A stretch of 64,000 nt of DNA from Bremia lactucae (Eukaryota > Oomycota > Peronosporomycetes > Peronosporales > Peronosporaceae): positions 650,520 through 714,519 of the forward strand of contig NW_027152031.1 in the NCBI RefSeq assembly GCF_004359215.1. The letters run 5' to 3'. The notes under the pieces were generated by a model that searched no databases, was not told where the DNA came from, and saw only the letters and a program-made list of their open reading frames with translations. The position numbers were made by a program, and so were the translations under genes. Of the stretch, positions 4,581 to 61,739 are shown piece by piece (position 1 is the stretch's first letter; every line of letters starts with the position of its first letter).

Positions 4581-5838
4581 ATGACCACTAAGTGTAAGTC
4601 ACAGACTCTTAGCACCTTCCTTAACGATAAGATAATAGACTATGAAAGTCACGTTCCATCGGAGGAGGAGGAAACGAGCGCGGCTCCTACACGCCTCGGC
4701 GTGTGGACGAATCTCGACGGGCCCCAAATCCGTTCAGAATGTGATAGCTGCATGGCGCAGGTCACCGGACCCTGATTCCAACATAATTACGAACCCGCTC
4801 AATGAAGAGCAAGAGCAGGCAATTCTCACGGAGGAACAAGCTCGTCGTCTAGCTGCAGACCTTGCAAAAGCAAAACCTCACAGTGAATATCGAGTCACTT
4901 CACTAGCGTAGAAAAGCACCTCAAAGAGGTAGCGGGTCGCAGCTTGACCACCTGGACCTCCGGATCCAAGGCGAGGACGTCGGAGGAGCTCGCTGCTCGT
5001 GACACTCTTATGAGCGATACCTAACGTCCAAAGTAATGACGCGAGTTCAGTAATTGTCGCGTTTGCGTGATCCGGGCCGTGGGGCTTCGATGACATCAAT
5101 GAGAGAAATTCCGATAGTTCTGTTTTCAAACGAATCAAAAAGCGAAAGTAAAGTTTCATTTGAGAAGTGGGTCCATCGGGCCCGCCTCCTCCGCAATATT
5201 TGAAATGTTAGAAAGTCAGCGTATGTGGCTGATGTTCGTTCGGAAAGGAAGCTTCGCTTCGTATTCGCCAAGCTTAAGGCCAAAGCCCAGTTAGGATTTC
5301 GGCATTTATGCCTCAAAATGAGTATAGGCCTAGTCAACACTTCAGTGTTTTAGTTTTTTGCGCGACCATGGATCGAATCCGCACTGAGGCTATAGATCCA
5401 CCTAATCCCTCGTCTAGTGGTGGGAAGCGTCGTTTGACGCGAGTTGACCCTGAGCTTGGCGCTCAAAAACGTCAACGGCGTACAGGCAATCTTGCCGAAG
5501 AGGTACCTCAAACTCTTAAGAGTTATCAGAAGAGGGGTAGCCTTGCCACTTAACCAGATACCGATATCGACCCTTACGACGACGTCGCTTTAAAAGTTTC
5601 TCCATATGAAACTGAAGGTTCATGCGCACATCAAGCAGCGCGGGAGCGGGCCAAAATTTCGGCGGAAGTATTGGATGCTCTAAGGTACGAGGTGCAACAT
5701 CTTCGCAAGGGCTTTGCTTGGGTTGAGAGCTATTTTGACGCGGTCCACAATAGTCTTTTAACGTTGGAATGTCAACAGTCCCGCTTAGAGGATCAGCTGG
5801 ACATCCTAGTGAGGATGTCCAGGGGATCGTCAATGTAA
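4581..5838 (+). pseudogene. B1 antisense ORF (opposite gag-pol), broken
   Basis: Runs opposite to B1 pol, starting at ATG 4581, about 115 bp inside the 3' LTR. Segments in successive frames carry the family landmarks: SQTLSTFLNDK at the N-terminus, EEQEQAIL and AKAKPHSEYR in the middle, ERKLRFVFAKLKAK near 5250, GGKRRLTRVDPELGAQKRQRR near 5420-5480, and a helical C-terminus (LEDQLDILVRM). It is interrupted by several frameshifts and ends at 5838 inside a sequence insertion. From about 5500 it overlaps, antisense, the chromodomain part of pol. Function unknown; the highly charged, basic-rich middle suggests nucleic-acid or chromatin contact, but that is inference. Confidence 0.65.
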
Positions 5839-12758: not shown

Positions 12759-13800
12759 TTGCAGGTGACTGAGCCGAGTTGGCATCATCGCCTGACTCGG
12801 TGGCATCTGTTAAGGCCTCCTGATCAACCAGGGCCACGTCCGCCGTTAGACCTACAGGCTCTAGTGGCAAGCAAAGAGGTGATGACGACGTCGTTTGACA
12901 CGTCGCGAGACCCTTTTGGTGCGAAGTCAGCTTGTGATGACTCCGTGGACGACGATTACTCTGGTGATGTCAGTATGCATCACCAGGAGCGAAGTGATCG
13001 TAAAAGTCACTTCGGTAAGCATACTAGTGGTGGTGCTAGTATGCACAACCAGGGACGGAGTGATTCTAAGGATCACTTCGAGATTTATGTTAGCGTTAAT
13101 GCTAACATGAATCAATGGGAGAGGGACCGCAATGATTTGCAGTTCGCTCCCAAAAAGAAGCCCTGGTTGCCCTCTACGGGTAACCTAACTCGTTGGTCTG
13201 GTATGACCAACGATCGATACCAAATTCAATTATTCGACTCATCCAGGCTCCACAAGCCTGGTGAGGACGAAACGGAATTCTTCATCGACGGCTTTTTCCG
13301 GCATCGGTAGTTCATATGCAAGCGGGCAAAAAATGTCACTCCTTTGTTCGAAGCTTGAGAAGCATTTGTACAGAATTTTGCAAAGCATAGGCGCGGGGCC
13401 TGGCTTGACAAACTGGATGCTTTCCGTGACCAGTTCGAAAAGCAGATCGTAGTCGATGCATACACCGTTTGTCTAGAGAGGCAGGGTTACCTTGGGGAAC
13501 TCATGCTCATGCTGTTTTAAGGAAGCAGGTCATGCCCTTAATGAGGCAAACTTCCTTAAAGACCCTCATTGGAGGACGCTCATATCTTGTGAGATGTGCG
13601 AAGGGATTGAAAGCCTCCAAACATTGTACGAGCACGGGAAGCGCTCATTCTCCGATGCACCGCATCAGCTATCGGGCACAGTCTTTCGTGGGCCCTCTGT
13701 CGAGGTGAATGCGTCTCGTCGTACCGTCGAACGAGACCCAGAACGTCCATCATCAGTTGGGGACTTATTGCGTCAATATTACCAAATTTGGTTTTATTAA
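12759..13800 (+). pseudogene. Divergent homologue of the family C antisense ORF
   Basis: Not flanked by gag or pol. The first 183 codons are open and hold three imperfect 22-residue repeats (DVSMHHQERSDRKSHFGK, GASMHNQGRSDSKDHFE, NANMNQWERD). The rest, over two more frames, parallels the C antisense ORF: PKKKPWLP, a tyrosine/leucine-rich stretch, GEDETEFFIDGFFRHR (C: FLKHRWFSGN), GAWLDKLDAFRDQFEK (C: REAWLHRLNANRVKFEK), then GNSCSCCFKEAG (C: GDPCPCCVD) and ISCEMCEG. Clustered cysteines suggest a metal-binding fold (inference). Two frameshifts (about 13300 and 13490) mark it as broken in this assembly. It could be a free-standing gene or the relic of another retroelement family. Confidence 0.55.
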
Positions 13801-17066: not shown

Positions 17067-18170
17067 ATGTTGATTGGTCAGAACCATCATTTTAAATTTC
17101 ATCGTATGCAGAACAAACTCATGCGGGGTGTTAATAGTGCTGCGCTTCGGCTGCGGTTCGTGCAGCCGCAGGTGACGCACTGTTATCTCTTGCGGCAGAC
17201 GTTCCGTCTGCCGTAGTATCTTCCACTCGCGCAACACTAGATATTGCGGGTACACGTGGTGATTCACCACGTGAATACGATTCCTCTTTGGAGGTCGACT
17301 ACGAATGCGAGTCGGACGAAATGGCCGACTCGGGGAGAATAGAACAGTCGCCTGATAGACGTCAGGCGGCTATCTATGACCCTTGGAGTGAGAGCGCTCA
17401 TTCTGATAGACGAGTCAATAGTCTATTTGGTTCCGACGATGAGGTGATCCCTCATCGCCCGTACGATCTCCTATACGGTCACTTGCACGTGTTTCTGTGC
17501 AAGGTGACGACGATGGCGTAAGCCATCGTAATAAAAGGCTTTGTGGTACCCTTGCTTCAGTGGGTACCACTCAGGGGAGTGAAAACAATAAAATGTCTCA
17601 TCTCGCCCCTGAAAAGAAGCCGTGCTTTTGCCAGAACGGCTAATCGATAGCTTGTCTGGAGAGACTACTACTCACAATAAATATTCCTTATTTATTGCGA
17701 CAAAGCTACATGGCCTTAATCCCAGCGCGAAGAACTTTCGCGCTGAGAAAGATTTTTATTTTGATGCTTTTCTTAAGCATCGATGGTTTAGTGGCAACAA
17801 GTGAGATAAAGTCTCGCTTATGCAAGCGTGGAGCGCGTTCATTCGCAATGTCAAAGACATTGGACGCGAAGCCTGGCTTTAGAACTTATAGCGAATCGCG
17901 TTAAGTTTGAGAAACGAACTCCAACCGGTGCCAAGTATAAATTGTATCGGTTGTCACGTGAGGCTGGGCTTCCATGCCTCACGTGGGGTGACCCCTGTCC
18001 GTGTTGTGTTGACAACTCGAAGAGGGTAAAAGGGGATGTCTATTCCCTTTCTTCGCCCTGGGGAAGGGCTCGCATCTCTATTGAGATGCGGGATGCGATT
18101 GACGTTTTTGCAATCGATTTTCAAGCGCCAGGGGCGCGTGTTTTCCGATGGGCCTTCTGAACCATAGGAT
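17067..18170 (+). pseudogene. C' antisense ORF
   Basis: Opposite to C' pol and about 80 bp inside the LTR. Likely start is ATG 17067. Landmarks shared with 62386-63463 (-): SLEVDYECESDEMAD (17291-17335), KYSLFIATKLHGLNPSAK (about 17680-17740), FDAFLKHRWFSGN (about 17760-17800), ANRVKFEKRTPTGAK, and LTWGDPCPCCVD (about 17980-18015). Four or more frameshifts. The sequence is packed with short hairpins, e.g. CACGTGGTGATTCACCACGTG in part at 17254-17275. Its 3' end is cut by a deletion at about 18170-18185. Confidence 0.65.
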
Positions 18171-18184
18171 GGGTCTCGCCATAC

Positions 18185-18915
18185 TACTTGCGGACGAACT
18201 CATACTGGCGTGGGCGTCACAGACCACATAAAATGGTCTATGATGGTCCGCAATCGCCAGGATTGGCGATTTGCATCAAGCTTTGCTTGATACCCTAAGA
18301 AATGCTGACTATCAGCGTTCCATGACCACTTTACGTTTTTCTTCAACAAAGAAGAAATCTGTGCTGTCATTTCAGCAAAATTGCGTGAGTACTTGTGCAG
18401 GTAAGCCGCTAAGCCGAGAAACTTTCGAATTCCCTTCATATCGACTGGCGCAGGCCAATCGGTGATCGCCTTGATCTTTTCCGGATCCAGGCGTACATGG
18501 TGTTTACCTACGATGCACCCAGAAATGGTATTTCGCTTGCATTCTAGATAGTTAAATAAATCAAGAGGCTGTCACTACCAGCGAATAGACACTTCTTGAG
18601 ATTTGTATACAACTTATGCTTACGCGTAAGTGTAAGAGCCTTTAAGACGTTGGTACGATGCACTTCAACGTACGACTTTCCGTTCATGGCTCTGCTTTGA
18701 ACGAAGACGTCATTAAAATAACTCTGTGCGAAATTTCGCACCGATCTCAACAGATTGTTTACATGTCGTAGGGCCCGTAGCAAAACTAGCCACTCCCATA
18801 GCATCTTACGTGGGGTGCTTACTGGATATCACGTTCACGCATAAGGATCTGATAGAATCTATCCATCAGATCCATAGACGAAAAGATAGTACTCTTTGAC
18901 ATAGCATCAATAATT
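18185..18915 (-). pseudogene. C' RNase H and RT remnant
   Basis: Connection region GIRKFLGLAAYLHKYSRNFA (18430-18375) and RT thumb with LTRKHKLYTNLKKC. The active-site box reads YFNDVFVQSRA, so the first catalytic aspartate of Y-x-D-D is asparagine. Integrase and most of RNase H are missing: about 20 bp of integrase-finger DNA (18188-18207) is fused directly to RNase H DNA at GGCG. The fragment ends at about 18915 against B gag. Confidence 0.75.
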
Positions 18916-20955: not shown

Positions 20956-20981
20956 CCGCATCTCTGCGTGTGAAAGTAAGG

Positions 20982-22780: not shown

Positions 22781-22781
22781 G

Positions 22782-23582: not shown

Positions 23583-23693
23583 AAGTTGGCTTTAAAATAA
23601 AACAAACAAGTGCTAATTTACAGACAGTGACATAATAATACTCTCTGTCACTTTACAATAGTCACTAAAGTGACTTTTGTTTAGTGGGAATAA

Positions 23694-24199: not shown

Positions 24200-24293
24200 A
24201 AGACCCACTCCAGCAACAAACAGGATTATTTTTAGCCAATCAGAATACCTCAAAATTCGGTGGGGTAAGTTAAGCAAAAACCTGGATGGGTCT

Positions 24294-24744: not shown

Positions 24745-24857
24745 CCCTCCCCCATCAGACTGTTGACACCGATTGACAACATTTGCGTCATTTCCTCTTT
24801 GAGGTTGGAACCTAAACAGCTAACAGTTTGGTTGTGTGTTTTCCATTCCTTTGTCTA

Positions 24858-26131
24858 ATGACAATCAAGCGTGAGTCACAGACTCTGAGCACCTTCCTCG
24901 ACGATGAGGGAATGGTGGACTCTCTCAGAGGAGGAGGAAAAAAGCGGCGTTCGCTCACGCCTTCTCCTCCGGACGAACGTCGGCGAGCCCCGAATCCGTT
25001 CCCAGAACGTGGTGCCGTTGATGTCTAACTGCATTGAGCAGGATACGGAACCCTGAGTCCAACATCATTCCGATTCCGCTCGATGAAGAGCAAGAGCAGA
25101 TAATCCTCATAGAGGAAAGAGCTCGTCGTCGGGCTGCCGAGATAGCGAAAGCTAAAACTCATAGTGAAAAAAGATTCACCCCGCTTAGTGCGGACGAGCG
25201 TCTCAAAGAGGTAGCGGGTCACAGCTTGGGCACCTGGATCTCCGGTGACCCGGCGAGGACGCCGAAGGAGATTGCTGCCCCCGACGCTCTTCATGAGCAA
25301 TACCTTACGCCAAAGGTAATGACGCGAAGCCAGTATCTGACGCGTTTACGCGATCAAGCCCGTGGGGCTTCGGTGACCTTCATGAGGGAAATTCCGATCA
25401 TTTTGTTTCCAAACGAAACAAGGAATGAAAACGAAGTCTCATTTGAGAACTGGGTCCACCGGGCCCGCCGACTTCGTAATATTTGGAATATTAGAGTCTG
25501 CGGATAGAGGTGATGTTCGTTTGGAACGGAAGCTTCGCTTCGATTTCGCTAAGCTTAAGGCCAAAGGCAGCCGATATTTCAGTGCTTCGGTTACCCGTAC
25601 AACCATGGATCGAAGCCGCACTGAGGCTATAGATCCACCTTATCCCATTTTTAGTGGTGGAAGCGTCGTTTGACGCGAGTTGACCCTGAGCTTGGCGCTC
25701 AAAAACGTCAACGGCGTACGGGCAATCTTGCCGAAGAGGTACCTCAAACTCCCCAAGAGTTATCAGAAGAGGGGTACCCTAGCCACTTCAACAGATACTG
25801 GTATTGACCCTTGCGACGACGTCGCTTTAAAAGTTTTTCCACATGTAACTGAAGGTTCATACGCACATCGATCAGCGCGGGAGGGGGGCGAAATTTCGGC
25901 GGAAGCATTTGATGCTCTACGGCTCAGGGGCAATTTCTTCGTGAGGTCCTTGCTCGGTTTGAGAGCTCTTTTGAGGCGGTTCTGGACCGTCTTTCGACGC
26001 TGGAGAGTCAGCAGCCTCGTTTAGAGGGCCAGCTGAACATCCTGGTGAGGTTGCAGCAATCTGAGGCACGGCCGCCTGTCTTGGCGCAAGCGCCTTCAAG
26101 TCCACGTGAGAAGGGTCCCGATATGGCTTAA
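24858..26131 (+). pseudogene. B2 antisense ORF
   Basis: Opposite to B2 gag-pol; ATG 24858 lies about 115 bp inside LTR1, stop TAA 26129-26131. About 420 codons in the undamaged family. Order: SQTLSTFLDDEGMVD; basic/proline stretch; PLDEEQEQIILIEERARRRA and AKTHSEKRFTPLSADERLKE (25076-25210); MTRSQYLTRLRDQARG; ENWVHRARRLRNIWNI; LERKLRFDFAKLKAKG; SRTEAIDPP; RLTRVDPEL in part; then a helical end LEGQLNILVRLQQSEARPP and PREKGPDMA. At least four frameshifts. From about 25690 it overlaps pol antisense (chromodomain, linker). Basic and coiled-coil character is seen; function is unknown. Confidence 0.65.
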
Positions 26132-27290
26132 GCAAGCCAACGTAAGACACTGGGTGTGTATGCAGCTTGCTGGGAAGGTTTAGCGTATAAGCTAGGCCTT
26201 TCTTGGCCATGGTCCAATAAAGCGCGGGCGCAATTTGGTCTTGAAGACCGCGGAAACCAAGTTGGTGGGTATGTTTTTAGCGTTTAGTAAAACTCGGTCT
26301 CCTACCATATAAGAATTAATACAGCTTTTGCCTTTGGCATCTGCTTGTTCTTTTCGTTTGTCTTGGCTATCAGCCATCGTATCCCTTACATGTCTTAAGA
26401 CGCGAGAAACTCGCTTACGTGTTTCCGAACGGTTACAGGGCTGATATCAGCAAGCCTATCGGCCAATTCTCCCCACCAAGCCCTGAACCACGCAGTGGTA
26501 TCGTTAGTGGAACGCGCAGGTGGGTAAGAGCGTTTATGTAGAACGGAGTATAGCCTGTAGAGGCATGTATAGCGTTACTTAACGCAAATTCCACTACTGG
26601 GAGCATGGAGCTCCAGCGCTTTGGTGTCTGAGCCACACGCTGCGTAAAACGTCTTCAATGACGCAATTGACACGTTCAGTTTGACCATCGGTATGCGGAC
26701 GGTCCGCAGTGGGCATATCCAACCTGGTGCCAAGCACTCGGAAAATTGATTTCCAGAATTTACCCGTGAAACGGGGATCCCGATCAGAAACAATTGCCAG
26801 TGGCAAACCATGTTGTCGAAGCACGCGATCTATAAACAGCTTCGCTGTACCCTCTCTAACAATGGAATCCGGCACGGCCGCTAAGTGAGCCATTTTGCTC
26901 AAACGGTCAACAAAGACCAATTAACCGGAGTTACCGGCTGAATTTTTCGGTAGCCCAAAAACAAAATCCATACTTATAGACTCCCAGCATCCGATGGGGA
27001 CGGGAAGACTCGCCAGTGGCGCAGCAGCATGTGCCGAGGGTTTTTAAACCGTTGGCACGTTTCGCATGTGCAAACATATGTGCTGACCCATTTATAAAGT
27101 TTGGGCCACCAATAACTCTGGCTGATAGAGCCGTAGGTCTTTTCTCTACCGAGATGACCACCAAGGACGGTATCGTGTGCCTCATAGAGGATCCGGTTCT
27201 TCAAATCCTCATCATGAGGAACAGCGACACGCGGAGGGTCCGCGGTGTCTGTGCAATAAAGCAACACGTCGTTATCGATAGAAAATTGAT
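25690..27290 (-). pseudogene. B2 integrase and chromodomain, broken
   Basis: From 27267 down: zinc finger with HDTVLGGHLGREKTYGSIS and CTCETCQRFKN; core with MVFVDRLSKMAHLAAVPDSI (first Asp), AIVSDRDPRFTGKFWKS (second Asp) and [20 protein letters not shown] (Glu), so the DDE triad is intact. After a frame change follow RWSSMLPVVEFALSNAIHAS and the barrel HPVSYVGLLKPYRDPSHVD. The linker to about 25917 is hydrophilic. The chromodomain (LHVEKLLKRRRRKGQYQY, LLKWLGYPSSDNSWG) is at about 25855-25750, followed by a broken tail. Several stops separate the parts. Confidence 0.85.
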
Positions 27291-27479
27291 GTAACCGTGC
27301 AGCAAACGTGCCGGTAATTTAATACCCGAATCCGAGTTCTTGGCTCGGCTCGTAGCCGAGCTACACACTGTTCATCCTTGGCGTAAGCCGAACGGATTAT
27401 TTCAGGAATAGGTGACGAGATAGTCGTTGAATGAGAAAGCTCAAAATCCGGCCTGCTTGATTAAGCATCGGCCAAAGCA

Positions 27480-28945
27480 TTTTGCTTGCCGGGTTTATAC
27501 TTCACCTCGAAGTTGTATTCCGCAAAAAAGAAAAGCCACCAAGCCATTCTCTGTGAGAGATGGGACGACTTGGTCGCGTGCGTAATGACGCGTGATCTGT
27601 ATAAATCACAAACGGCTTAGAGCCGAGCAGATGAACTCTGAATTTGACGAGATCATACTTCATAGCAAGTAACTCTTTGTCATGAACTGGGTAGTTTTTC
27701 TCCGCAGCTTTAAGCTGTCTAGACTCGAACGCAATATCGCGTTCGTGCCCATCATCATCTGTGTGTAACAGAGCACTGCCAATGGCAAAATCTGATGCGT
27801 CACAGACGACACTGAAATGCCAATTTGGGTTTGGCAGTGCCAGAATCGGGGCATGGATAAGACTATCCTTAGCTGCTCGAAAAGCATTATTTTCGGTGCT
27901 AGTCCAGCACCATTCTGTATCCTTTTAAGGAGATTAGATAATGGCCTAGCCATTTCAGCGTAAGTTTCGCAATATATGTGTAGATAATTGGCGAGACCCA
28001 ACCACTTACGCAAATCCTTTTAGTTTTTAGGAACCGGCCAATCTACTATGTATTTTACCTTAGCGGGATCCGCTCTAAGGCCTCGCTTTCCAATGAAGCA
28101 TCCTAAAAAAGGAACTTCGTCTGCGCCAAAAAGGCATTTAGATGCATTGGCATACAATTTGTTTGTGCGCATGCATTTGAGCACTGCTCGCAAATGGTCT
28201 AAATGGTTTTCCATATCCAACCGACCCTGCTCTGCACGACTATCGACAAAATTATCATGAAAATAAGTCTGTGCATAACCTTGATGAGGGTGGAACAGTT
28301 GCGTCACTAGACAATTAATTATCGCCGGGGCGTTGGAAAGCCTTTGTGGCAATACAACCATACCGCTTGGGGTGCTAACCGCTGTAAGTGGGATATCGTT
28401 AGCTCGCATGAGCAATTGATAGTAACTATCGACTAAGTCCAATGCACTTTACATTGTACATCCCACCAAATTATTCTAAAATCCTTTCTACGAATGGGGG
28501 TTTATGCTGGTATAGTGACAGCATTAAGCTTATTATAAACATGTACAATGCGCCATTTACAATTTGGCTTTTTGACACAAAATGTCGGTGTCAAATGAGG
28601 AGATTTGCTCTCTCGTACCATTCCAGCCTCGTGCTTAGCACGGAAGAAATCGTCAATGACGTCACACTGCTCCCTTGGTAAAGGCCATCGTCTTGTGACA
28701 CAGTATTTGGTTCCCGGAACTAAGTCAATTTCATGACGAACACCTCTATCCGGAGGTAAAACAGATGGTGGGTTATTACATACCACATCTTGGAATTGCT
28801 CAATCAAGGAATAAAAGGGATCTGTAGAATCTTTAAGGATCGATGACCTATTTCGCGCACTAAGTGCAGCTTTTGTGTCATCCAGGACAGCTTCGTCAAG
28901 AAGGGACGATGAGTTTAACTCAACCATAGGTCGAACGACCACCAT
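27480..28945 (-). pseudogene. B2 reverse transcriptase and RNase H, dead active site
   Basis: 28945-28502 gives [40 protein letters not shown] and [17 protein letters not shown]. 28442-28020 gives MDLVDSYYQLLMRANDIPLT, the active-site box TYFHDNFVDSRAEQG and NASKCLFGADEVPFLGC. The Y-x-D-D box reads YFHD-N, so a catalytic aspartate is lost. RNase H follows in shifted frames (WLGLANYLHIYCETYAEMAR, then VCDAS and TGSALL equivalents near 27800). B3 carries the same changes. Confidence 0.85.
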
Positions 28946-32003: not shown

Positions 32004-33277
32004 ATGACAATCAAGCGTGAGTCACAGACTCTGAGCACCTTCCTCGACGATGAGGGAATGGTGGACTCTCTCAGAGGAGGAGGAAAAAAGCGGCGTTCGC
32101 TCACGCCTTCTCCTCCGGACGAACGTCGGCGAGCCCCGAATCCGTTCCCAGAACGTGGTGCCGTTGATGTCTAACTGCATTGAGCAGGATACGGAACCCT
32201 GAGTCCAACATCATTCCGATTCCGCTCGATGAAGAGCAAGAGCAGATAATCCTCATAGAGGAAAGAGCTCGTCGTCGGGCTGCCGAGATAGCGAAAGCTA
32301 AAACTCATAGTGAAAAAAGATTCACCCCGCTTAGTGCGGACGAGCGTCTCAAAGAGGTAGCGGGTCACAGCTTGGGCACCTGGATCTCCGGTGACCCGGC
32401 GAGGACGCCGAAGGAGATTGCTGCCCCCGACGCTCTTCATGAGCAATACCTTACGCCAAAGGTAATGACGCGAAGCCAGTATCTGACGCGTTTACGCGAT
32501 CAAGCCCGTGGGGCTTCGGTGACCTTCATGAGGGAAATTCCGATCATTTTGTTTCCAAACGAAACAAGGAATGAAAACGAAGTCTCATTTGAGAACTGGG
32601 TCCACCGGGCCCGCCGACTTCGTAATATTTGGAATATTAGAGTCTGCGGATAGAGGTGATGTTCGTTTGGAACGGAAGCTTCGCTTCGATTTCGCTAAGC
32701 TTAAGGCCAAAGGCAGCCGATATTTCAGTGCTTCGGTTACCCGTACAACCATGGATCGAAGCCGCACTGAGGCTATAGATCCACCTTATCCCATTTTTAG
32801 TGGTGGAAGCGTCGTTTGACGCGAGTTGACCCTGAGCTTGGCGCTCAAAAACGTCAACGGCGTACGGGCAATCTTGCCGAAGAGGTACCTCAAACTCCCC
32901 AAGAGTTATCAGAAGAGGGGTACCCTAGCCACTTCAACAGATACTGGTATTGACCCTTGCGACGACGTCGCTTTAAAAGTTTTTCCACATGTAACTGAAG
33001 GTTCATACGCACATCGATCAGCGCGGGAGGGGGGCGAAATTTCGGCGGAAGCATTTGATGCTCTACGGCTCAGGGGCAATTTCTTCGTGAGGTCCTTGCT
33101 CGGTTTGAGAGCTCTTTTGAGGCGGTTCTGGACCGTCTTTCGACGCTGGAGAGTCAGCAGCCTCGTTTAGAGGGCCAGCTGAACATCCTGGTGAGGTTGC
33201 AGCAATCTGAGGCACGGCCGCCTGTCTTGGCGCAAGCGCCTTCAAGTCCACGTGAGAAGGGTCCCGATATGGCTTAA
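32004..33277 (+). pseudogene. B3 antisense ORF
   Basis: Appears identical to 24858-26131, including every frameshift. The same landmarks, the same overlap with the chromodomain, and the same stop ending in PDMA. Because identical lesions are present in both copies, they were acquired before the duplication. Confidence 0.65.
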
Positions 33278-42109: not shown

Positions 42110-43405
42110 ATGGCATCGAAGCGTGAGTCACGGACTCTGATCACCTTCCTCGACGATAAAGGAATGGTAGACTATGAAAGTCACGCTCCACCGGAGGAGG
42201 AGAAAAAGGAGCGCGGCTCCTACACGCCTCGTCGTGTGGACGAATCTCGGCGGCCCCAAATCCGTTCCCAGAAGTGGTGCCGAGAATGTGTAGCTGCATG
42301 GCGCCGGACACCGGACACTGATTCCAACATAATTACGAAACCGCTCGATGAAGAGCAAAGAGCAGGCAATTCTCATGGAGGAACAAGATCGTCGTCCAGC
42401 TGCAGACCTTGCAAAAGCTAAACCTCACAGTGAATATCGATTCACTTCACTTAGCGTGGAAAAGCTTCTCAAAGAAGTTACGGGTCGCAGCTTGACCACC
42501 TTGACCTCCGGATCCAAGGCGAGGACGCCGGAGGAGCTCGCTGCTCGCGACGCTCTCATGAGCGATACCTTACGTCCAAAGTAATGACGCGAGTTCAGTA
42601 ATTGTCGCGTTTACGTGATCCGGCCCGTGGGGCTTCGATGACATCAATGAGAGAAATTCCGATAGTTCTGTTTTCAAACGAACCAAAAAGCGAAAGTAAA
42701 GTTTCGTTTGAGAACTGGGTCCATCGGGCCCGCCTCCTCCGCAATATTTGAAATGTTAAAGAGTCAGCGTATGTGGCTGATGTTCGTTCGGAACGGAAGC
42801 TTCGCTTCGTATTCGCCAAGCTTAAGGCCAAAGGCCAGTTAGGAGTTCGGCATTTATGCCTCAAAATGAGTATAGGCCTAGTCAACACTTCAGTGTTTTA
42901 GTTTTTTGCGCGACCATGGATCGAATCCGCACTGAGGCTATAGATCCACCTAATCCCTCGTCTAGTGGTGGGAAGCGTCGTTTGACGCGAGTTGACCCCG
43001 AGCTTGGCGATCAAAAACGTCAACGGCGTACGGGCAATCTTGTCGAAGAGGTACCTCAAACTCGCAAGAGTTTTCAAAAGAGGGGTCTAGTATTGGCCCT
43101 TTCGATGGCGTCGCTTCAAGAGTTCCCCCACGTGAAACTGAAGGTTCGCTCGCGCATCAAGCAGCGCGATAGGGAGCCGAAATCTTGACGAAAGCATTTG
43201 ATGCTCTAAGGCACGAAGTGCAACTTCTTTGCGAGGGCCTTGCTCGGGTTAAGGGCTCTTTTGAGGCGGCTCAAAACCGTCTTTTAATGATGGAACGTAA
43301 GCAACCTCGTTTGGAGGGTCCGCTGGACATCATGGTGCTGATGTAGCAGTCTGCGGCATGGCCGTCTTTTTGGCGCAAGCGCCTCCAAGTCCACATGTAT
43401 AGGCT
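42110..43405 (+). pseudogene. B4 antisense ORF
   Basis: ATG 42110. MASKRESRTLITFLDDKGMV, then PPEEEKKERGSYTPRRVDES; EEQDRRPAADLAKAKPHSEY and RFTSLSVEKLLKEVTGRSL; after a lesion shared with B1 (a missing G in CCAAAGTAATG) MTSMREIPIVLFSNE in another frame; MDRIRTEAIDPPNPSSSGGK then RRLTRVDPELGDQKRQRR. The opening frame is the longest N-terminal stretch of the family in the window (bases 42110-42421). The end overlaps pol antisense. Several frameshifts. Confidence 0.65.
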
Positions 43406-46400
43406 CTGATATGGCTAAGCAAGCCGACGTAAAACACTGGTGTGTCCGCAGCTTGCTAGGAAAATTTAGCGCTTACGCTAGGCCCTTCTTGACCGCGACC
43501 GTAAATGGTCCAATAAAGCGCGGGTGCAATTTGGTCTAGTAGACCGCGGGAACCAAGTTGGTAGGTAGAATTATAGCATTTAATCAAACTCGGTCTCCGA
43601 CCGCATAAGAATTAATACAGCTTCTGTCTTTGGCATCTGCTTGTTTTTTTGTTTGATATGGCTATCAGCCATCGTGTCACGTACATGTCTTAAGGCACTT
43701 AATTGCGTTGCGAGAAACTCACTTGCTTGTTTCCGAATGGTGACAGGGCTGATATCAGCAAGCCTAATGGCTAACCCCCCACCAAGCCCTGAGCCACGTA
43801 GTGGTATCGTTATCGGAACGACTGGGTGGGTGAGACCGTTGACATAGAATGGAGTGTAGCCTGTAGAAGCATGGCAGCGTTATTAAACGCAAATTCCAGG
43901 ACTGGGAGCATTCAGCTCCAGCGCTTGGTGTGTCTGAGCACACACACTCCGCAGAACGTCTTCAATGACGCGATTGACACGTTCAGTTTGACCATCGGTC
44001 TGTGGATGGTCCGCTGTGGACATGTTCAATCTGGTGCCACGCACTCGGAAAATCGATTTCCAGATTTACCCGTGAAATAGGGATCTCGATCAGAAATAAT
44101 TGCCGCTGGCAAATCGTGTTGTCGAAGCACGCGATCTATTAACAGCCTTGTTGTACGTTCACCATCAATGGACCCGGCACAGCCGCTAAATGAGTCATTT
44201 TGCTCAATCGGTCAACAAAGAGCACGATGCCTGTGTTATCGGCCGAATCTTTCGGGAGGCCGAAAACAAGTTCCATACTAATGAACTCCCAACACCCTGT
44301 GGGTACAGGCAGACTAGCCAGTGGCGCAGCAGCATCCGCCGAGGGCTTAATTCTTTGGCAAGTTTCGCATTTGCGAGCGTATGCGCTGACCCATTTGTAA
44401 AGTTTGGGCCACCAATAAATCTGGCTTACAGGGTCAAAGGTCTTTTTTCTAAGACGTCCACCATGGACAATATCGTCTTAATCATAGAGGATTCGGTACT
44501 TCAATTTCTCATCATGTGAAACAACGACGCGCGGAGGATCCGCAGCGTCCGCGCAACAAAGCAAAGGTCGTCATCGATAGAAAATCGATGCAACCTTGCC
44601 CGCAAACGTGCGACAATTTAGAGCCTGATTTAGTGCTCTTTAGAGCTTGTAGCAGAGCTACACACTGTTCATCGTGGGCGGAAGCCGAACGGATTAATTC
44701 AGTAATAGGCGACATTATAGTCGTTAAAGTAGAGATCTCACAATCTGGTCGGCATGAAGACGCATCAGCCAAAGCATTCTGCTTTCCAGGCTTATTCTTC
44801 ACCTCAAAGTGTATTCGCCAAAAAAACGATAGCCATCGAGCAATTTTCTGTGAGAGATGGGGCGACTTCGTCGCAGTGCGTTACGACACGTGATCTGAAT
44901 ATTTCACAAACGGCTAAGAGCCTAACAGATGAACTCTGAATTTGTCAAGGGCATACTTCATTGCAGGTAATTATTTGTTATGAACTGGGTAGTTCTTTCC
45001 CGCAGCTTTAAGCTGTCAAGACTCGAACTCAATTACACGTTCACGCCCATCCTCATCTGTGTGTAACAGAGCACTGCCAGTGGCAAAATCCGATGCGTCA
45101 CAGACGACACTGAAATGCCAATTGGGATTTGGCAGTGCAAGAGTCGGGGCATGAAAAAGACTATCCTTATCTGCTTGAAAAGCATTATGCTCTGTGCTAG
45201 TCGAGCACCAATCCGTATTCTTTTAAATGAGATTAGATGATGGCCTAGCCATATCAGCGTAAGTTTCGCAATATATGTGTAAGTAATTGGCGAGACCCAA
45301 CCACTTACGCAAATCCTTTAGAGTTTAGGAACCGGCCAATCACTATGGCTTTAACCTTAGCGGTATCAGCTTTAAGGCCTCGCTTCGCATTGAAGCACCC
45401 TAAGAAAGAAATTTCTTCTGCGCCCAAAATGCATTTTGATGCATTGACATACAATTTATTTGTGCGCATACACTCGAGCACTGTTCGCAAATGGTTTATG
45501 TGGTTTTCCACATCCGTATGGCCCTGTTCCGCACGACTGTAGACAAATATATATCATCAAAATAAGTATGTGCATAACCTTGATGAGGGCGGAACAGTTG
45601 CGTCACTAGACGATTAATTATCGCCGGGGCGTTAAAAAGCCTTTGTGGCATATACAACTATACCGCTTGGGGTGCAAATCGCTGTAAGCGGGATATCACT
45701 AGCTCTCATGAGCAGCTGGACTATCGACTAAGTTAAGTGCACTGTACATCGTGCATCTAACCTATTGTTCTAAAGAACATCCTTTCTACGAATGGGGGTT
45801 TGTGCTGGAATAGTGGCAGCATTAAACTTGTTGTAAGCGTGTACAATGCGCCAATTGCCATTAGGCTTTTTGACATAAATTTCGGGGTAGAATTTGAAGA
45901 TTTACTCTCACGTACTATCCAAGCCTCGTGCTTAGCACGAAAAAAATCGTCAATGACTTCTCCCTGTTCCTCTGGCGAATGCTACTGTCGAGTAAAACAG
46001 TATTTAGTCCCTGGAACCAAGTCAATTTGATGACGGACACATCTATTCGGAGGTAAAACAGATGGTAGGTTGATACACGTCACATCTCGCAAAGGATCGA
46101 TGATCCACCCCGCGCACTAAGTGCCGCTTTTGTGCCCTTCAGGACGGTTTCATCCAGAAGTGACGATGAGTTAACTCACTATCTGGTCGACGACAACAAT
46201 CATAGGTAAGTCACCAGCCTATAAGGCTCGGTCGAACTCATCAACAGACATTTCGTCTAGCTCTAAGAGAGCATGTAATTAAGAATTGCCTCAAGGCTGA
46301 CTTTTTCCTCGATGTTACCAGTCACACCATTAACAAGCGTATGCAGCTGCTTGCAAGTATCACTTTGTGACATAACTTTTGTCTCGATGTTCCCAGTCAC

Positions 46401-46508
46401 ACCATTAACAAGCGTATGCAACTGCTTGCAAGTACCACTTTGTGACGTTATTGACGCTTCGCGTCTTCGCTGTCTTCGCTGTCTCGGTATCGAGACAATA
46501 CGCCTCTT
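42955..46508 (-). pseudogene. B4 pol, truncated within the protease-RT linker
   Basis: Chromodomain tail (NSCEFEVPLRQDCPYAVDVF, about 43075-43015, which shows the natural end of pol near 42960); linker; integrase 43430-44560 with frames corresponding to B1; RNase H 44750-45230; RT 45240-46030 including ENHINHLRTVLECMRTNKLY; and linker with the 25-residue repeat twice (46290-46440). At about 46508 B sequence stops and family C chromodomain DNA begins. Protease, gag and 5' LTR are absent. Nearly identical to B1 over 44050-46500. Confidence 0.8.
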
Positions 46509-46529
46509 CTGACGGACGAGGCCCTCACC

Positions 46530-46748
46530 GTCAGCAGCCAGCTGGGAACGAGGCTCCCAGCTGTCACGTGAAGGTGGATAACCAAGCCAGCGATCAAGAT
46601 AACTCGTTCGCTGCCCCTTCACATCACGGTAATTCTGGATACGTTCCACAAGGAAACGTTGATCACCGTGGGAATCCACCAATGATTGTGGTGGAGGAGG
46701 GAAAATAGATCCGAACCGTGTGTCGGATCTAATGTCGAGGATCGACAA
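46530..46748 (-). pseudogene. C- chromodomain
   Basis: QRFLVERIQNYRDVKGQRTS, YLDRWLGYPPSRDSWEPRSQ, then LAADGEGLV. A well-conserved chromodomain with aromatic-cage type residues; it would target integration to modified histones. It joins in frame with B4 linker sequence at about 46509, making a chance fusion. In the + copy the same place is split by a solo LTR. Confidence 0.85.
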
Positions 46749-47105
46749 AATCGATCACTTCCTCCATGATTTGGAGGAGATACTTGACCACTAGCGCGGC
46801 AGCGTCGCTCGTTGGAGCAGACGGTGCAGGATCACCATATCGAACGGTTGCAAGACTGTTCGAAGAGTGCGTACTCCATGTTGGAGTACGAACGGAAATA
46901 TCACACTGTTCGCGATGAGCTGTCGTCAGCTCATTGCAGTTTCGAGGATATTTGGAACCGGCATGAGAAACTTCAGGTTCAACATGAGAATCTGGTTCGC
47001 GATCACAATAATCTTTTAGGGATTCTTGAAAAGGGTCGTCAAATCCGTCCTCGGAAGAAGCCGCGTACTGATGGAACGGGCGGAGCCGACCAACGTAAAA
47101 CGTAG
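46740..47105 (+). pseudogene. C- antisense ORF, C-terminal coiled coil
   Basis: Opposite the linker between integrase barrel and chromodomain. Frame 46788-47105 reads SMLEYERKYHTVRDELSSAH, FEDIWNRHEKLQVQHENLVR, DHNNLLGILEKGRQIRPRKK and stops at TAG 47103-47105. The heptad pattern is clear (E-R-K, L, I, L, V, L). The preceding KIDHFLHDLEEIL part is in a neighbouring frame. It is the same relative position as the coiled-coil end of the family B antisense ORF. Confidence 0.6.
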
Positions 47106-47109
47106 GATG

Positions 47110-48560
47110 CGTTCGCATCCTACGTGGCAATTCTATTGTGTACGCATTGCCTCTGCGATGCAGTACACGGAGAGGCCCAATGAACTTGGGTAGTAGTTTA
47201 CTGCTATTCACACTAGTGACTAAACGCTTAGGTAGGTTTACCGTAGAGAGTAGCACTAGATCATTAATTTCAAATGAATGAACATTTGGTCTTCCACGTT
47301 TGACTGCATTCCGTTTCTGACGGTCCACTGCGTTAGCAATGTAATCCTGAACGAAACGGATTATTGATTCTCAAGCCAGAAGAAATTTCTCTGCTGACGC
47401 ATTTGTTTTGTCTTTTTCAGTACGCTTTGTGCGTACTGCCATGAGATCATTCTCGTCTTCGATGTCGATTTCGTCGACACCGACATCACTCGCGTCGTTG
47501 TTAAATCGATGCGTGATGAGCATGAGCCAGAAATGCTTTTGCTCGTGCGAGTCCACCCCCCCTTAAACTAGAGGATCCTTCTAATTGGGTGGGTATGCGA
47601 GGATGACGTAAGCCATTCACGAAGAGCGGTGTATGCGTTGTAGACGCATGTACCGAATTATTGATGGCGAATTCCACCATCGGTAAAAACTCCCTCCAAT
47701 TTGGATGCGATTGGACGTACCTCGAAGTATCTCTTCCAGGACGCGATTTACGCGTTCTGTTTGACCATCCGTTCCTGGGTGGTCGGATGTTGACATATTG
47801 AGCCGTGTTCCGAGAAATCGGAACACGGATTGCCAAAACTCCGCCGTGAACAGTGGATCTCTATCCGAGACCTGTTCACGGGGTAACCCATGGAGTTTAA
47901 ATACCGTGTCGATAAAGACACGGGCACAACCCGGAGCCGTAATTGACTCTGGTACTGCAGCAAGATGTACCATCTCGCTGAATCTGTCTACAAAACAAGG
48001 ATTCCATTGTTTTTGTAATCGTCTTCATGAAATCCGAAGACGAAGTCCATAGATACGGACTGCCAACACTCTACCGGAAGTGGTAGAGGTTGAAGAGGTG
48101 CACGGGATGAAGGGCTAGGCTTCATTCGTTGACATACGTCGCAAGCATGAATGTACTTGCGCACGAACTGATACTGGCGGGGCCAGTAAAAGTCGCGACT
48201 GACTGTGAGGTAAGTCTTCTCACGTCTACGATGCAAACTTGTTGGAGCATCGTGACACTCATACATGATGCGCAAGCGCAAATCATTGTGAGTTGGGACG
48301 ACGACACGTGGGGTGTCGCCGGTAACGGCTGTGTAATTCAATAAGCCGTTACGTGTTGTGTATCGATCGGATGACGATCGATAAAACGCCGGTAAATCTG
48401 TAAAAGATTTATCGGATGGATTCATTAAAAGATCCATCGAGCATAGAAGGTCCTTATCTTCTGTGTAGGCTTTCTTTATGTCATCATCTAGGGTTGATGA
48501 CGGAACACTCGTAGTGAGTGTTGCAAAAGTAGGATTATTTTCACTATTGGAGTGCAATGC
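47110..48560 (-). pseudogene. C- integrase
   Basis: 48557-47988 is a 189-residue open frame: YECHDAPTSLHRRREKTYLT, zinc-finger cysteines IHACDVCQRMKPSPSS, MDFVFGFHEDDYKNNGIL (first Asp). Next frame: MVHLAAVPESITAPGCARVF, EQVSDRDPLFTAEFWQS (second Asp), [20 protein letters not shown] (Glu). Then 47328-46729: MDRQKRNAVKRGRPNVHSFE, LPKFIGPLRVLHRRGNAYTI and HPTFYVGRLRPFHQY, the C-terminal barrel. DDE residues all present but in separate frames. Best-preserved integrase in the window. Confidence 0.88.
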
Positions 48561-51671: not shown

Positions 51672-52946
51672 ATGACACCCAAACCAGGGTCGCCGACCAT
51701 TGTCTGTTCCCTGAGGACGAGGAGCTCGTAGACTATGAAAAGTCTTACTCGGTCTGAGGAAGTGTAAGGACACCTAAAACTAGCACACAACAGCATGAAG
51801 ATGAGTCTCGTCAGGCTCCTAATCCGATCCCAGAACGTGATTTAGCGGATTCTATAACCGCATTGAGCAGAACACCGGGTCTGGAGGCGAATACAACAAC
51901 GAACTCGCTCGATGAAGAGCAAGAGCAAGTTATTCTCAGGAAGGAGCAAGCTCGTCTCCGGGCTGTGGTCCTTGCAAAAGCAAAAGCTCATAGTGATTAT
52001 AGATTCACTATGAGTCGTGTGTTGTACGCGTGGGCTCCTGGACCAAGGCGACCACGCCGGAGGAGCTCGCCGCACACGCTGCTCTTAGTAAGCGAAACCT
52101 TACCCCCCCCTAATGTGACGCCACGTCAGTATCTAGCGCGTCTGTGTGATTAAGCACGTGGTGCCTTTGTGACCTCTATGAGGAAAATTCTAATCATTTT
52201 ATATCCAAACGAGTTGGAATCCGACAGCGAGGAATAGTTTCTTGAATGGGTACACCCGGCAACCACTCTTACGGATATATGGTAACTTAGAGACTCTGTC
52301 GATATGGTCGACGTTAGCTTAGAACGAAAACTCCGCTTTGATTTCCCAAAGCGGAAGGCCAAAAGCCAAAAAGGTGCGGCGTATCGACCGCATTACGATA
52401 TACGGTCTAGCTAGCATTCTTGTGCTTCGGTTGGTTACGCAACCGTGATACAAGCCTCCTTAAGGCTGAGGATCCATTCATCTCCACCTCTATTGGTTCA
52501 AAGCATCGATTGAAGGAAGTTGACCCGGGCACTGCGCTCAAAAACTTCAACGGCGTACGGGGAATGTTGCCGAGGAGGAATCTTGTACTCTCAACAGTTT
52601 TTGAACGGCACGTCACCAGATAATGGAATCGACCTTTGCGACGACGTCGCTTCAGAAGTCTCTCGACGTAAAACTAAAGGTTCCCTGCTCGTCGGGTAAC
52701 GCAGGAGAGGGCGGAATATCGGTGACGTCTGTGTTGGCGTTAAGGCACGAGGTGCAACTTCTCTGTGAGAATCTTACTCGAACGGAGCGTACCCTTGGCG
52801 AAGTCCAAGAACGTCTGTTGACATGACGCATTATCACCTCGCTTAGAAGGCCAGCTAGACCTTCTGATGAGAATGCAGCAATCTGCAGCGCAGCCGACTT
52901 ACTCGCCGCGAGCGCCTTCCAATCCACATGTGAGGGGTCCCAATAG
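51672..52946 (+). pseudogene. D antisense ORF
   Basis: Old homologue of the B antisense ORF. NTTTNSLDEEQEQ-type segment gives LDEEQEQVILRKEQARLRAV then AKAKAHSDYRFTMS (about 51908-52015); LERKLRFDF near 52320; and a good heptad stretch LRHEVQLLCENLTRTERTLG, EVQERLLT (52740-52826). Amino-acid similarity to B persists although the nucleotide sequence has drifted far, which argues that this strand was once coding. Many stops. Confidence 0.6.
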
Positions 52947-55286
52947 GGCTTGTGTAAGTCAACGTAGAGCACTACGTGTGTACGCAGCTTACGTAGAAGT
53001 TTCGCGTATACGCTAGGCTCTTCTCGGCCACAACCGTAAAAGGTTCAATAAGCGCGGACGCAAGTTGGTCTTAAGACCGCAGATACTATGTTTGTAAATA
53101 GAATTTTAGCATTAGGTCATACTCGGTCACCGATTTCATAATAGTTAATACAGGTTCTGCCTTTCATCCGCTTGTTTTTTTTGTTTGTCGTGGCTATCAG
53201 CTATTGCATCCCGCACATGTCGTAAGACATTTAATCGCGTTGCAAGAAACTGACTAACCTGTTTCTTAACCGTTATTGGGCTGATATCAGCAAGTCGATC
53301 TGCTATCTATCCCGCACCAAGTCCTGAACCACGGAGTGGTAGCGTTAATGGAACGCGTGGGTGTATGGGACCGTTCACGTTGAACGGAGTATAGCCGGTA
53401 GAGGTATGCACTGCATTGTTGAACGCAAGCTCAACACCGGGAGCATTGTGCACCAGCACGTTGGCGTCAAAGCACACACGCTCCGCGGAACGTCTTCAAT
53501 GACGCGACTAACACGCTCAGTCTGACTATCGGTCAGAGGCTGATCCACCGCAGACATGTCCAATCTGGTGCCAAGCTTTTGTAAGATCGATTTCCAGAAC
53601 GCGGGGCCTCTATCAGAAACAATTGCTACTGGCAACCCGTGTTGACTAAACACACGATCAATAAATAGCCTTGCTCTACCTTTACCATCGATGATACCTG
53701 GCACAGCCGCTATATAAGCCATTTTGCTTTAACAAAGCCCGTATTACGGGCCTCATTTTTCGGTAGGTTTAACCAAAATCCATACTGATGGACTCCTAAC
53801 ACCCACTGACAAGCAGTGCCGTTGCATGTGCCGTAACCCGTTGGCAAGTTTCACATGTGCGGACATAGGTGTTTACCAATTCATAGTATTTTGGGCCATT
53901 AATAACTCTGGCTCACGGAGCCGTAGACTATTCTCGACCGAGATGACCACTAAAACACACGATATATGTGCCTCACAGAGGATTTGATACTTAAGGTCCT
54001 CATCGTGATGAACCACGATGCGCTGGAGATCCGCGGCATCAGTCGAATTGAACAAAGCCCCTTGTCGGTAGAATATAATGTAAGGTTGCTCTCAATCGCT
54101 CAATCGAGCCGAAAATATAATGTTTTTAGAACTCCTTGCTGCCAAGAGCGCAAAGCAAAGCCACGACATCCGTGGCATATGTCGAACGGATTTAGTCATC
54201 GATCGGCGACGTCGCGGTTGTCACATGAGCAAGCTCATAATCTAATATGCGTGATAACGCATCTGCCAAATCATTTGCTTTCCCGGCTTATACTTGACGT
54301 CAGAGTTATACCCGGCAAAGAAATAAAGCCATCTAGGCATTTTCTGTGAGAGATGAGGCGACTGATCGCGGGCGTTAAGACGCATGATCTATATATTGCA
54401 CGAAAGGCTTCAAGCCCACTAGATTTACTCTGAATAATTTGGTAAGAGCATACTTCATCGCACGTATCTTTTGTCATGAATAAAATTAATTTTTTCTGCA
54501 GCGTTAAGCTTTCTAGACTCGAACGCAGTTACGCGTGTCCGTCCATCTTAATCTGTTCGAAACAGAGCACTACCGATGGCAAAATCAGAGCGTCACAGAT
54601 GACACTGAATGGCCGATTAGGATTTGGCAGAGCCAAAATCGGAGCATGAATGAGACTATCCTTAACTGCTATAAAAGCATCACTTTTGGTGCTTGTCCAG
54701 CACCAATCTCTATCCTTTTAAGAAGATTGGATAATAGGCGAGCAATATCAGCGTATTTTTCGCTGTAGTTGTGCAAGTAGTTGGCTAGACCACTTTTGTA
54801 AATCCTTTTAATTTTTAAGAACTGGCCAATCAACTATGGCTTTTATCTTAGCAGGATCTGCTCTAAGGCCTCACTTATCAATAAAGCATTCTAGAAAAGG
54901 ATCTTCTTCTGCACCAAAGATGTATCCAGAAGCGTTTGCATATAGCTCATTTGTGCGCATGCATTCGAGCATGGCTCGCAAATGAGCGATGTGGTTTTCC
55001 ACATCCGACCGGCCTTGCTTGTACGACTGTGGATAGAAATGTTATCAGCTGTGCATAGCCTCGATAAGGAACGGTCGCTCACGACGAGTAAAAGTAGCCG
55101 GGGCACCGGAAAGTCTTTGTGGCTTTACCAACCACTCACATAGCATGCCGCTTAGAGAGCTAACCGCGGTAAGCGGGATGTCACTAGCTCGCATGAACAA
55201 CTTATAAAACCATGGACTAAGTCGAGCGCACTTTACATTGTACATCCCACCATATTGTTCTGAAGAGCATATTTTCTAGAAATAGG
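52652..55286 (-). pseudogene. D pol remnant (RT, RNase H, integrase)
   Basis: From 55245 down: RT with FYKLFMRASDIPLTAVSSLS and LVKPQRLSGAPATFTR; thumb with GAEEDPFLECFI near 54900; RNase H near 54650-54500; integrase core MAYIAAVPGIIDGKGRARLF, QHGLPVAIVSDRGPAFWKS, DSQTERVSRVIEDVPRS (53722-53470), where SDRD has become SDRG; tail YVDLHKPYWDPSHVDW (52972-52925). RT is cut at 55286 by the C+ LTR; gag and protease are missing. Heavily mutated. Confidence 0.75.
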
Positions 55287-61340: not shown

Positions 61341-61739
61341 TCCTACGTTTTACGGTGGTAGGCTCCGCCCGTACCATTATTACGCGGTTTCTTCCGAGGA
61401 CGGATCTGACCACCCTTTTCAAGAATCCCTAAAAGATTCTTGTGGTCACGAACCAGATTCTCATGTTAAATCTGGAGTTTCTCATGTCGGGTCCGAAGAT
61501 CCTCAAAACCGCGATGAGAGGACGACCGCTCATCACGAAAAGCGTGATATTTCCGTTTGTATTCCAACATGGAGTACGCACTCTTCGAACGGTCTTCCAA
61601 CCGTTCGATATAGTGAGCATGCAGCGTCTGCTCAACGAGCGACGCTTACCGCGCTCGTGATCAAGTCCCTCCTCCAATTCATGGAAGAAGTGATCAAGTT
61701 TGTCGATCTTCAACTCTAGATCTCACACATGGGTCGGAT

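What the first reader, a model, noticed from the sequence alone, without database searches (positions are those of the whole stretch)
24858..26131. Antisense accessory ORF between pol and 3' LTR in four retrotransposon lineages
Every family B copy (B1 4581-5838, B2 24858-26131, B3 32004-33277, B4 42110-43405), the old relative D (51672-52946), family C (17067-18170, 61343-63463, C-terminal part 46740-47105) and probably A (2170-2404) carry an ORF opposite to gag-pol. It starts about 80-135 bp inside the 3' LTR and points back toward pol. In D the nucleotide sequence has drifted far but the segments DEEQEQ, AKAKxHS and LERKLRFDF remain, suggesting past protein-level constraint. B and C products differ in sequence but share layout: charged N-terminus, basic or Cys-containing middle, coiled-coil end. 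Transcription would have to come from the 3' LTR in antisense, reminiscent of HTLV HBZ and of antisense extra ORFs reported in plant Tat-lineage Gypsy elements. I know of no such description for this kind of genome.
Basis: partly seen in the sequence, partly recalled or inferred. Interest (0 to 1): 0.82.

Follow-up and report, generated by a model that had tools for sequence, protein, structure and literature searches.

The report
Antisense gene in oomycete retrotransposons
Jumping genes in this water-mould (oomycete) genome carry a hidden extra gene written backwards at their far end, partly on the back of their own enzyme gene; selection kept its protein for a long time, although its job is still unknown.

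Summary
An antisense gene lies between pol and the 3' LTR of chromodomain Ty3/Gypsy elements. All window copies are broken (longest open stretch in B2: 161 of 424 codons), but some other copies in the genome are open for 377-515 codons. Homologues occur in Hyaloperonospora, Peronospora and Phytophthora. Outside the pol overlap, pN/pS in the antisense frame is 0.52 between B and D lineages and 0.45 in family C; unrelated frames give 0.84-1.52, mirror frames 0.59-0.68. So this was a protein-coding gene under purifying selection; close copies decay about neutrally.

Corrections: the ATG lies 114 bp (B2) or 80 bp (C1) inward of the LTR edge, not in the LTR. About two fifths of the gene lies opposite the pol tail and its chromodomain (476 bp in B, 698 bp in C), in the same phase. 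A is not supported; B3 duplicates B2; a C-like copy at 13.0-13.8 kb was missed.

No Pfam family above its cut-off and no solved fold was found. Best guess: a nuclear accessory regulator like plant Grande gene23, fungal Boty brtn or HTLV HBZ. Transcription, localisation and function are untested. New variant of a known kind.

The parts
24858..26131 (+). Copy B2: antisense gene, broken here by stops and frameshifts
   Evidence: ATG read; P0001 residues 1-451 match 24858-26128 in two frames; longest open stretch 161 codons
24294..24744 (-). B2 3' LTR (451 bp, 5'-TG..CA-3' on the - strand)
   Evidence: repeat matches at 31384 and 38523-39094 and sequence
24745..24756 (-). polypurine tract of B2 next to the 3' LTR
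   Evidence: read directly
24757..24857 (+). leader between PPT and antisense ATG, with initiator-like YCAYTYY sites at 24788-24794 and 24843-24849
   Evidence: sequence; conservation; motif definition from PMC3599244
25654..26131 (-). B2: pol 3' end lying opposite the antisense gene (approximate pol stop to antisense stop); chromodomain region
   Evidence: pol stop mapped by alignment from L065; Chromo E 1.2e-12 and SH3_Tf2-1 in L065 pol tail
26594..28448 (-). B2 pol remnants: RVT_1, RT_RNaseH, Integrase_H2C2, rve (rve below its cut-off)
32004..33277 (+). Copy B3: antisense gene, identical to B2 (tandem duplicate)
4581..5838 (+). Copy B1: antisense gene, broken
   Evidence: P0001 74-431 in several frames, 4759-5832; start from alignment
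42110..43405 (+). Copy B4: antisense gene, broken
   Evidence: P0001 1-434, 42110-43367, in several frames
51672..52953 (+). Copy D: antisense gene of an older relative, broken
17067..18185 (+). Copy C1: antisense gene of family C, truncated (matches P0042 residues 21-361)
   Evidence: several homologues start at the equivalent of the second ATG, 17106
61343..63463 (-). Copy C2: antisense gene of family C, interrupted by an inserted C-type LTR at about 61924-62369
46508..47105 (+). Copy C3: C-terminal part of the C antisense protein (residues 361-559), opposite pol
46266..47370 (-). C3 pol tail: SH3_Tf2-1 (E 4e-13) and chromodomain (E 3e-8)
13008..13764 (+).

Best explanation
Shown: these chromodomain Ty3/Gypsy elements carry a third gene, antisense to gag-pol, starting about 80-115 bp inward of the 3' LTR. 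It runs back over the pol stop and overlaps the pol tail by 476 bp (B) or 698 bp (C). It encodes a protein of about 430-450 aa (B type) or 530-560 aa (C type): an acidic N-terminus, one predicted folded, mostly helical domain, a predicted disordered basic stretch and a predicted C-terminal coiled coil. The part outside pol evolved under purifying selection. Inferred: it is transcribed on its own from an initiator-type promoter in the leader or the 3' LTR, and its product is a nuclear, coiled-coil-forming accessory protein. It would act in trans on the element's own cycle, most likely tuning transcription or integration (as proposed for plant antisense ORFs such as Grande gene23, and as HBZ does for HTLV, the latter recalled). 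Confidence about 0.95 for the coding gene under past selection, about 0.4 for a nuclear regulator of the element, about 0.2 for any narrower role. Close copies lose it freely, which fits a trans-acting product selected only in copies that still move.
For: Protein constraint outside pol: B x D, 45 pairs (9 x 5 copies), pN/pS 0.52 (range 0.43-0.61); four other frames 0.97-1.11, mirror frame 0.68; B x window B1/B2/B4, 27 pairs, 0.52; window B x D, 15 pairs, 0.52. Family C: main x L073, 10 pairs, 0.45; other frames 0.84-1.52, mirror 0.59. Single-pair bootstrap, e.g. L012/wD 0.51 (0.41-0.64), L068/L073 0.44 (0.35-0.55). Homologues: 41 B-type proteins, 28 with a profile (partly the same), 139 C-type proteins of which 120 were listed; those with an organism name are Peronosporaceae genera. 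Invariant columns in 17 B and 15 C proteins. Models: B folded 85-250 and helix 375-430; C folded 177-342 and helix 429-536. Leader: at 40 of 45 distinct places there is an initiator motif in the antisense direction, at 1 of 45 in the other; 28% in shuffles. Nuclear idea: basic clusters KRQRR (B) and KKxRTD (C) in the alignments, read by eye.
Against: No transcript, protein or localisation data. The basic clusters and the coiled coil lie in the pol overlap, where selection cannot be assigned: pol frame 0.66, antisense frame 0.77, another frame 0.76. Synonymous change in pol was lower in the overlap in 4 of 5 comparisons, but not for window B2 (0.340 against 0.252). D x D pairs gave a weaker 0.70, and 3 of 13 single pairs had intervals reaching 1. 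For C main x L077 and main x wC2 the mirror frame was as low as the antisense frame. Initiator motifs in related copies are not independent, and D has no exact match in its leader (sequence, read by eye). No domain that binds DNA or RNA was recognised. Whether homologues in other species are antisense to pol was not tested, as no DNA was at hand.
Confidence: 0.5

Rival explanations
1. The open antisense frames are a by-product of pol coding on the other strand or of base composition; no protein was ever made.
For: Part of the gene lies opposite pol, and B/C similarity there can come from the chromodomain. Close copies evolve at about neutral ratios.
Against: The selected part lies outside pol; pN/pS there is about half of that in the unrelated frames. 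Homologues with invariant residues, many of them full-length, occur in other genera. Open frames exceed every shuffle in the six open copies tested.
Confidence: 0.03
2. The antisense protein is a structural or particle-associated factor (for example an assembly helper, or an integrase partner that meets the chromodomain), not a regulator of expression.
For: Coiled coil and invariant H/C residues in the C type (H282, C292, C299, C302 of P0042) could bind metal and nucleic acid. The gene sits over the integrase chromodomain in two families in the same phase.
Against: An antisense transcript is a poor route to a particle protein made in fixed ratio with Gag (reasoning). No Gag-like or zinc-knuckle family was found in the proteins scanned.
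Confidence: 0.25
3. The function is in the antisense RNA (dsRNA and small RNAs, self-limitation), with the protein secondary.
For: Small RNAs of both strands map along Gypsy elements in Phytophthora infestans (PMC3522703, passages read). The reviewers of plant antisense ORFs raise the same idea (PMC7264820).
Against: Selection acts on amino acids rather than on nucleotides in general: pS reaches 0.55-0.74 in the antisense frame outside pol in the between-lineage comparisons.
Confidence: 0.12
4. It is a captured host gene or a foreign insertion that happens to be near the 3' LTR.
For: No relative of the folded domains was found among solved structures (B and C) or predicted viral structures (C only).
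Against: Fixed place, fixed 476- or 698-bp overlap and fixed phase with pol in the copies where this could be read. No named host gene family appeared among the homologues listed, but most hits carry no informative name.
Confidence: 0.1

Closest known systems
Plant Tat/Retand, Grande (gene23) and RIRE2 antisense ORFs (aORF-3R)
   Same: Antisense to gag-pol, between pol and 3' LTR, present in most copies, old; Grande gene23 product is nuclear with its own promoter (PMC7264820, parts 1-2 of 3 read)
   Different: No TRP28 (PF04195) match; Retand has a long pol-LTR region of 2.9-6.6 kb (PMC11963269 abstract), here the gene runs into pol and over the chromodomain; sequences of the plant proteins were not compared directly
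Boty antisense gene brtn of Botrytis (Zhao et al. 2011)
   Same: Non-plant LTR element with an antisense gene between pol and 3' LTR (as cited in PMC7264820)
   Different: Known to me only through citations; the paper was not read and sequences were not compared
HTLV HBZ
   Same: Antisense gene read from the 3' side of a retroelement; charged protein with a C-terminal coiled coil (HBZ details recalled)
   Different: HBZ is bZIP (recalled); no bZIP match here and no basic region next to the helix. Transcription from the LTR is not shown here
Chronos elements of oomycetes (PMC5348765, abstract and one results section read)
   Same: Ty3/Gypsy with a chromodomain at the pol C-terminus, in Peronosporales
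   Different: Chronos has an added aRNH; the B and C remnants in the window leave no room for one. The terms antisense, opposite, additional ORF, extra ORF, accessory and unknown function do not occur in its main text

Membership tests
Chromodomain Ty3/Gypsy elements | Chromodomain at the C-terminus of pol after integrase | tested here: met
   Chromo E 1.2e-12 in L065 (B); E 3.3e-8 at 46266-46754 (C3)
Chronos (oomycete) | Second, archaeal-type RNase H between RNase H and integrase | tested here: not met
   B2: the RT_RNaseH frame 27505-27924 and the H2C2 frame 26977-27318 are 186 bp apart; C3: one 210-aa frame begins at what reads by eye as the RNase H end and holds H2C2
Plant Retand antisense ORFs | Antisense ORF between pol and 3' LTR | tested here: met
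Plant Retand antisense ORFs | TRP28 domain (PF04195) | tested here: not met
   no such match at E<=1 in 13 antisense proteins or parts scanned with Pfam (3, 5, 5)
HTLV HBZ-like antisense proteins | bZIP domain | tested here: not met
   no bZIP family at E<=1 in the same 13; the KRQRR stretch is about 60 residues from the predicted coiled coil in P0001
HTLV HBZ-like antisense proteins | Transcription from the 3' LTR in antisense | not testable with these tools
   no RNA data; initiator-like motifs lie in the internal leader
Antisense accessory genes of LTR elements (general kind) | Present in many copies, with protein-level constraint | tested here: met
Known protein folds | Relative among solved structures | tested here: inconclusive

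The most novel reading that the evidence does not exclude
Two antisense proteins without detectable relation to each other (B and C type) hold the same place and the same phase opposite the chromodomain in diverged chromodomain elements of Peronosporaceae. The most novel reading is an old, shared system in which an element-encoded antisense protein counteracts or steers its own chromodomain integrase, the two genes being locked together by dual coding and expressed from opposite ends.
Probability: 0.1. Interest if true: 0.85.

Novelty: new variant of a known kind. Interest (0 to 1): 0.62.

Why it matters
Antisense accessory genes are reported from plant and fungal LTR elements and from HTLV. 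An independent case in oomycetes, in the Gypsy class that fills more than half of the assembled sequence of a downy mildew (58.6% in Bremia lactucae, PMC6570648, passages), would show that this layout arose repeatedly. The many copies and several lineages make the question of what antisense genes do for retrotransposons testable by counting. The gene also overlaps pol by up to 698 bp, an unusually long two-strand coding overlap for a retroelement (my judgement; no survey was made).

Tried and rejected
dN/dS among close B copies gave no clear signal and was followed by between-lineage tests. A homology between B and C proteins was sought and not found beyond the chromodomain-opposed part. Family A as a carrier was rejected. 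Chronos membership was rejected. Searches for known domains, solved relatives and folds found none above cut-off (Pfam; NCBIfam; PDB sequences; folds); weak hits, mostly to coiled coils, were ignored. The name 'Core-binding (CB) domain-containing protein' given to P0048 was not reproduced by Pfam. The synonymous-rate test in the pol overlap (repeated) was mixed and is not used as proof. Searches held three places twice (L031, L051 and L053 are L012, L021 and L023); one search repeats the counts of 81 and 83 without them, and its numbers are the ones given. Eight of the 53 leader regions, window B1 and B4 among them, had no recognisable anchor and were dropped. The organism was not identified by a test. 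Homologues with an organism name come from three genera; one species each of two of these was looked up and both are Peronosporaceae. Size and gaps fit Bremia lactucae SF5 (115 Mb assembly, PMC6570648), which stays a guess. Searches for an earlier report in oomycetes: (open-licence library only); none of the listings pointed to one, and most listed papers were not opened.

Full report
What is there. The window lies in a 116-Mb, 220-contig genome. The elements named B, C and D are Ty3/Gypsy: B2 keeps RVT_1, RT_RNaseH, Integrase_H2C2 and a weak rve remnant on the - strand, and the genomic B copy L065 ends pol with SH3_Tf2-1 and a chromodomain. C3 keeps SH3_Tf2-1 and a chromodomain. B and C pol fragments are 43-61% identical in protein (three fragment pairs). 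For B2 the 3' LTR is 24294-24744, the polypurine tract is 24745-24756 on the - strand, and an ATG on the + strand is at 24858.

The antisense gene in the window. None of the window copies is open. B3 is an exact copy of B2 over 1274 bp. C2 carries a C-type LTR inside the gene at about 61924-62369. Region A gave no match to any of the six proteins tried.

Copies elsewhere in the genome. The B2 DNA query gave 44 matches from 40 scored candidates. The D query gave 56 matches from 40 candidates, the C1 query 44 from 40. Protein P0008 gave 110 matches from 95 scored of 3348 candidates, and P0106 gave 88 from 87 scored of 7309; all are lower bounds. Several copies are open on the antisense strand, stop to stop: 377 codons in L012, 515 in L035, 513 in L044, 385 in L068, 400 in L075, 427 in L071. 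Among 500 dinucleotide shuffles of each, the longest frame on either strand was 232-297 codons. These six were chosen as open ones; most fetched copies are broken. In 30 of 30 loci L031-L060 an integrase piece lies on the opposite strand, convergent with the antisense gene.

Selection. Among 28 close B sequences the ratio of nonsynonymous to synonymous change against a spectrum-matched expectation was 0.92 for singletons and 0.86 for shared changes, not clearly different from other frames (0.93-1.13 and 0.80-1.48); adding window B1, B3 and B4 gave 0.73 for shared changes, against 0.82-1.39 in other frames. Most differences between close copies look like decay after insertion. Between lineages the picture changes. 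In codons before the pol stop (1-233 of the L012 frame), 45 B x D pairs gave pN/pS 0.52 and dN/dS 0.36. Frames +1, +2, -0 and -1 gave 0.97-1.11, and -2, whose third positions coincide with those of the antisense frame, gave 0.68. B x window B1/B2/B4 (27 pairs) gave 0.52 against 0.97-1.08 (mirror 0.75); window B x D (15 pairs) 0.52 against 0.87-1.13 (mirror 0.67); D x D (10 pairs) a weaker 0.70 against 0.77-0.94. In family C, 10 main copies against L073 gave 0.45 (others 0.84-1.52, mirror 0.59), and main x main (45 pairs) gave 0.59 against 0.97-1.11, with the mirror at 0.64; main x L077 and main x wC2 gave 0.66 and 0.63, where the mirror frame was equally low (0.63, 0.64) (L074 was aligned but left out of the groups). 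Pairs within a group are not independent. Single-pair bootstraps: L012/wD 0.51 (0.41-0.64), L035/L062 0.44 (0.35-0.56), L068/L073 0.44 (0.35-0.55). Three of 13 pairs had intervals reaching 1: L012/wB2, wB1/wB4, L068/wC1.

The overlap with pol. In copies where both frames are open across it the overlap is 476 bp (L065, L066, L054) or 698 bp (C: L071, L078). The relative phase was the same in all 21 frame pairs listed, from 18 loci (17 places) of both families; copies of one family share it by descent, so this is two observations. The antisense third position faces the pol second position (my reading of the phase), which leaves little freedom. In the overlap the pol frame gave 0.66, the antisense frame 0.77 and one unrelated frame 0.76. 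Synonymous change in pol was lower in the overlap than in pol-only sequence for wD (0.439 against 0.579, 49 pairs), wB1 (0.152, 0.394, 49 pairs), wB4 (0.233, 0.390, 48 pairs) and B x B (0.147, 0.282, 1167 pairs), but higher for wB2 (0.340, 0.252, 49 pairs); nonsynonymous change also differed. This may point to dual coding but does not prove it.

The proteins. B homologues: 41 (only the 7996 candidates sharing most words were scored) and 28 in a profile search, from Hyaloperonospora, Peronospora and Phytophthora where named. C homologues: 139, of which 120 were listed; the named ones listed are Peronospora matthiolae, with one cluster of 1335 members, and Hyaloperonospora arabidopsidis. In 17 aligned B-type sequences 26 columns are invariant, 9 of them in the DxRLER..R...A.LxA core, which lies outside the pol overlap. 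In 15 C-type sequences invariant columns include the H/C residues of HRLSREAGLPCLSWGDPCPCC. AlphaFold2 models with these alignments have mean pLDDT 60. B: folded 85-250, disordered 257-370, helix 375-430. C: folded 177-342, helix 429-536. No sequence family above its cut-off and no convincing fold match was found. B and C profiles match only weakly and only where both face the chromodomain.

How it may be expressed. In Phytophthora infestans the initiator YCAYTYY is one of the core promoter motifs, and motif hits are commonest within 50-100 nt of the start codon; initiator alone was estimated in 18% of promoters and together with FPR in 13% (PMC3599244, passages). Of 53 leader regions from distinct places, 45 had a definable leader; 40 of 45 contain the motif in the antisense direction and 1 of 45 in the other (37 and 1 of 41 distinct sequences); shuffles gave 28%. 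The copies are related, and D has no exact match (sequence), so this is a lead only. No RNA data were available.

Comparison. [quoted passage not shown] the Boty paper itself was not read). Retand elements carry them with a TRP28 domain in a long pol-LTR region (PMC11963269, abstract and discussion). The present case shares orientation and place, not the domain or the long region, and it runs over pol. In Ectocarpus, another stramenopile, chromodomain Gypsy lineages are reported; the passages read mention a gene opposite to the transposase in a Sola1 DNA transposon but no antisense gene in the Gypsy lineages (PMC12477816, passages). Eight searches of the open-licence library showed no report for oomycetes.

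Verdict. An antisense accessory gene under past purifying selection is well supported. Its expression and role are open. The nuclear regulator reading rests on analogy, basic clusters seen by eye, and a predicted coiled coil.

Noticed in passing
24294-39094: B2 and B3 form an LTR-internal-LTR-internal-LTR array with 98.2% identical units while LTR copies differ far more (84-90%), so an old element was duplicated in tandem recently (or the assembly repeated it).
   Followed up: partly
61924-62369: A family C LTR sits inside the antisense gene of C2 and so inside the pol end, a nested insertion or recombination product.
   Followed up: no
13008-13764: A further C-like antisense gene remnant; with the fragments tried no integrase or RT match was found beside it between 11 and 18 kb.
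   Followed up: partly
1-2785 and 20403-24290: Family A remnants hold protease, gag and RT pieces; an RNase H match at 1771-2025 lies on the strand opposite to the RT match, which suggests an inversion or another element.
   Followed up: no
49309-50280 and 56387-57245: Long runs of N within otherwise open gag frames.
   Followed up: no
P0037 and P0038 (database proteins): Predicted proteins that join antisense-protein sequence with integrase core (P0037) or integrase SH3 domain (P0038, Phytophthora cactorum) on one strand; probably rearranged copies or joined gene models.
   Followed up: no
24757-24857 and about 51570-51671: The leader between polypurine tract and antisense ATG looks similar in B and D (read by eye).
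   Followed up: no
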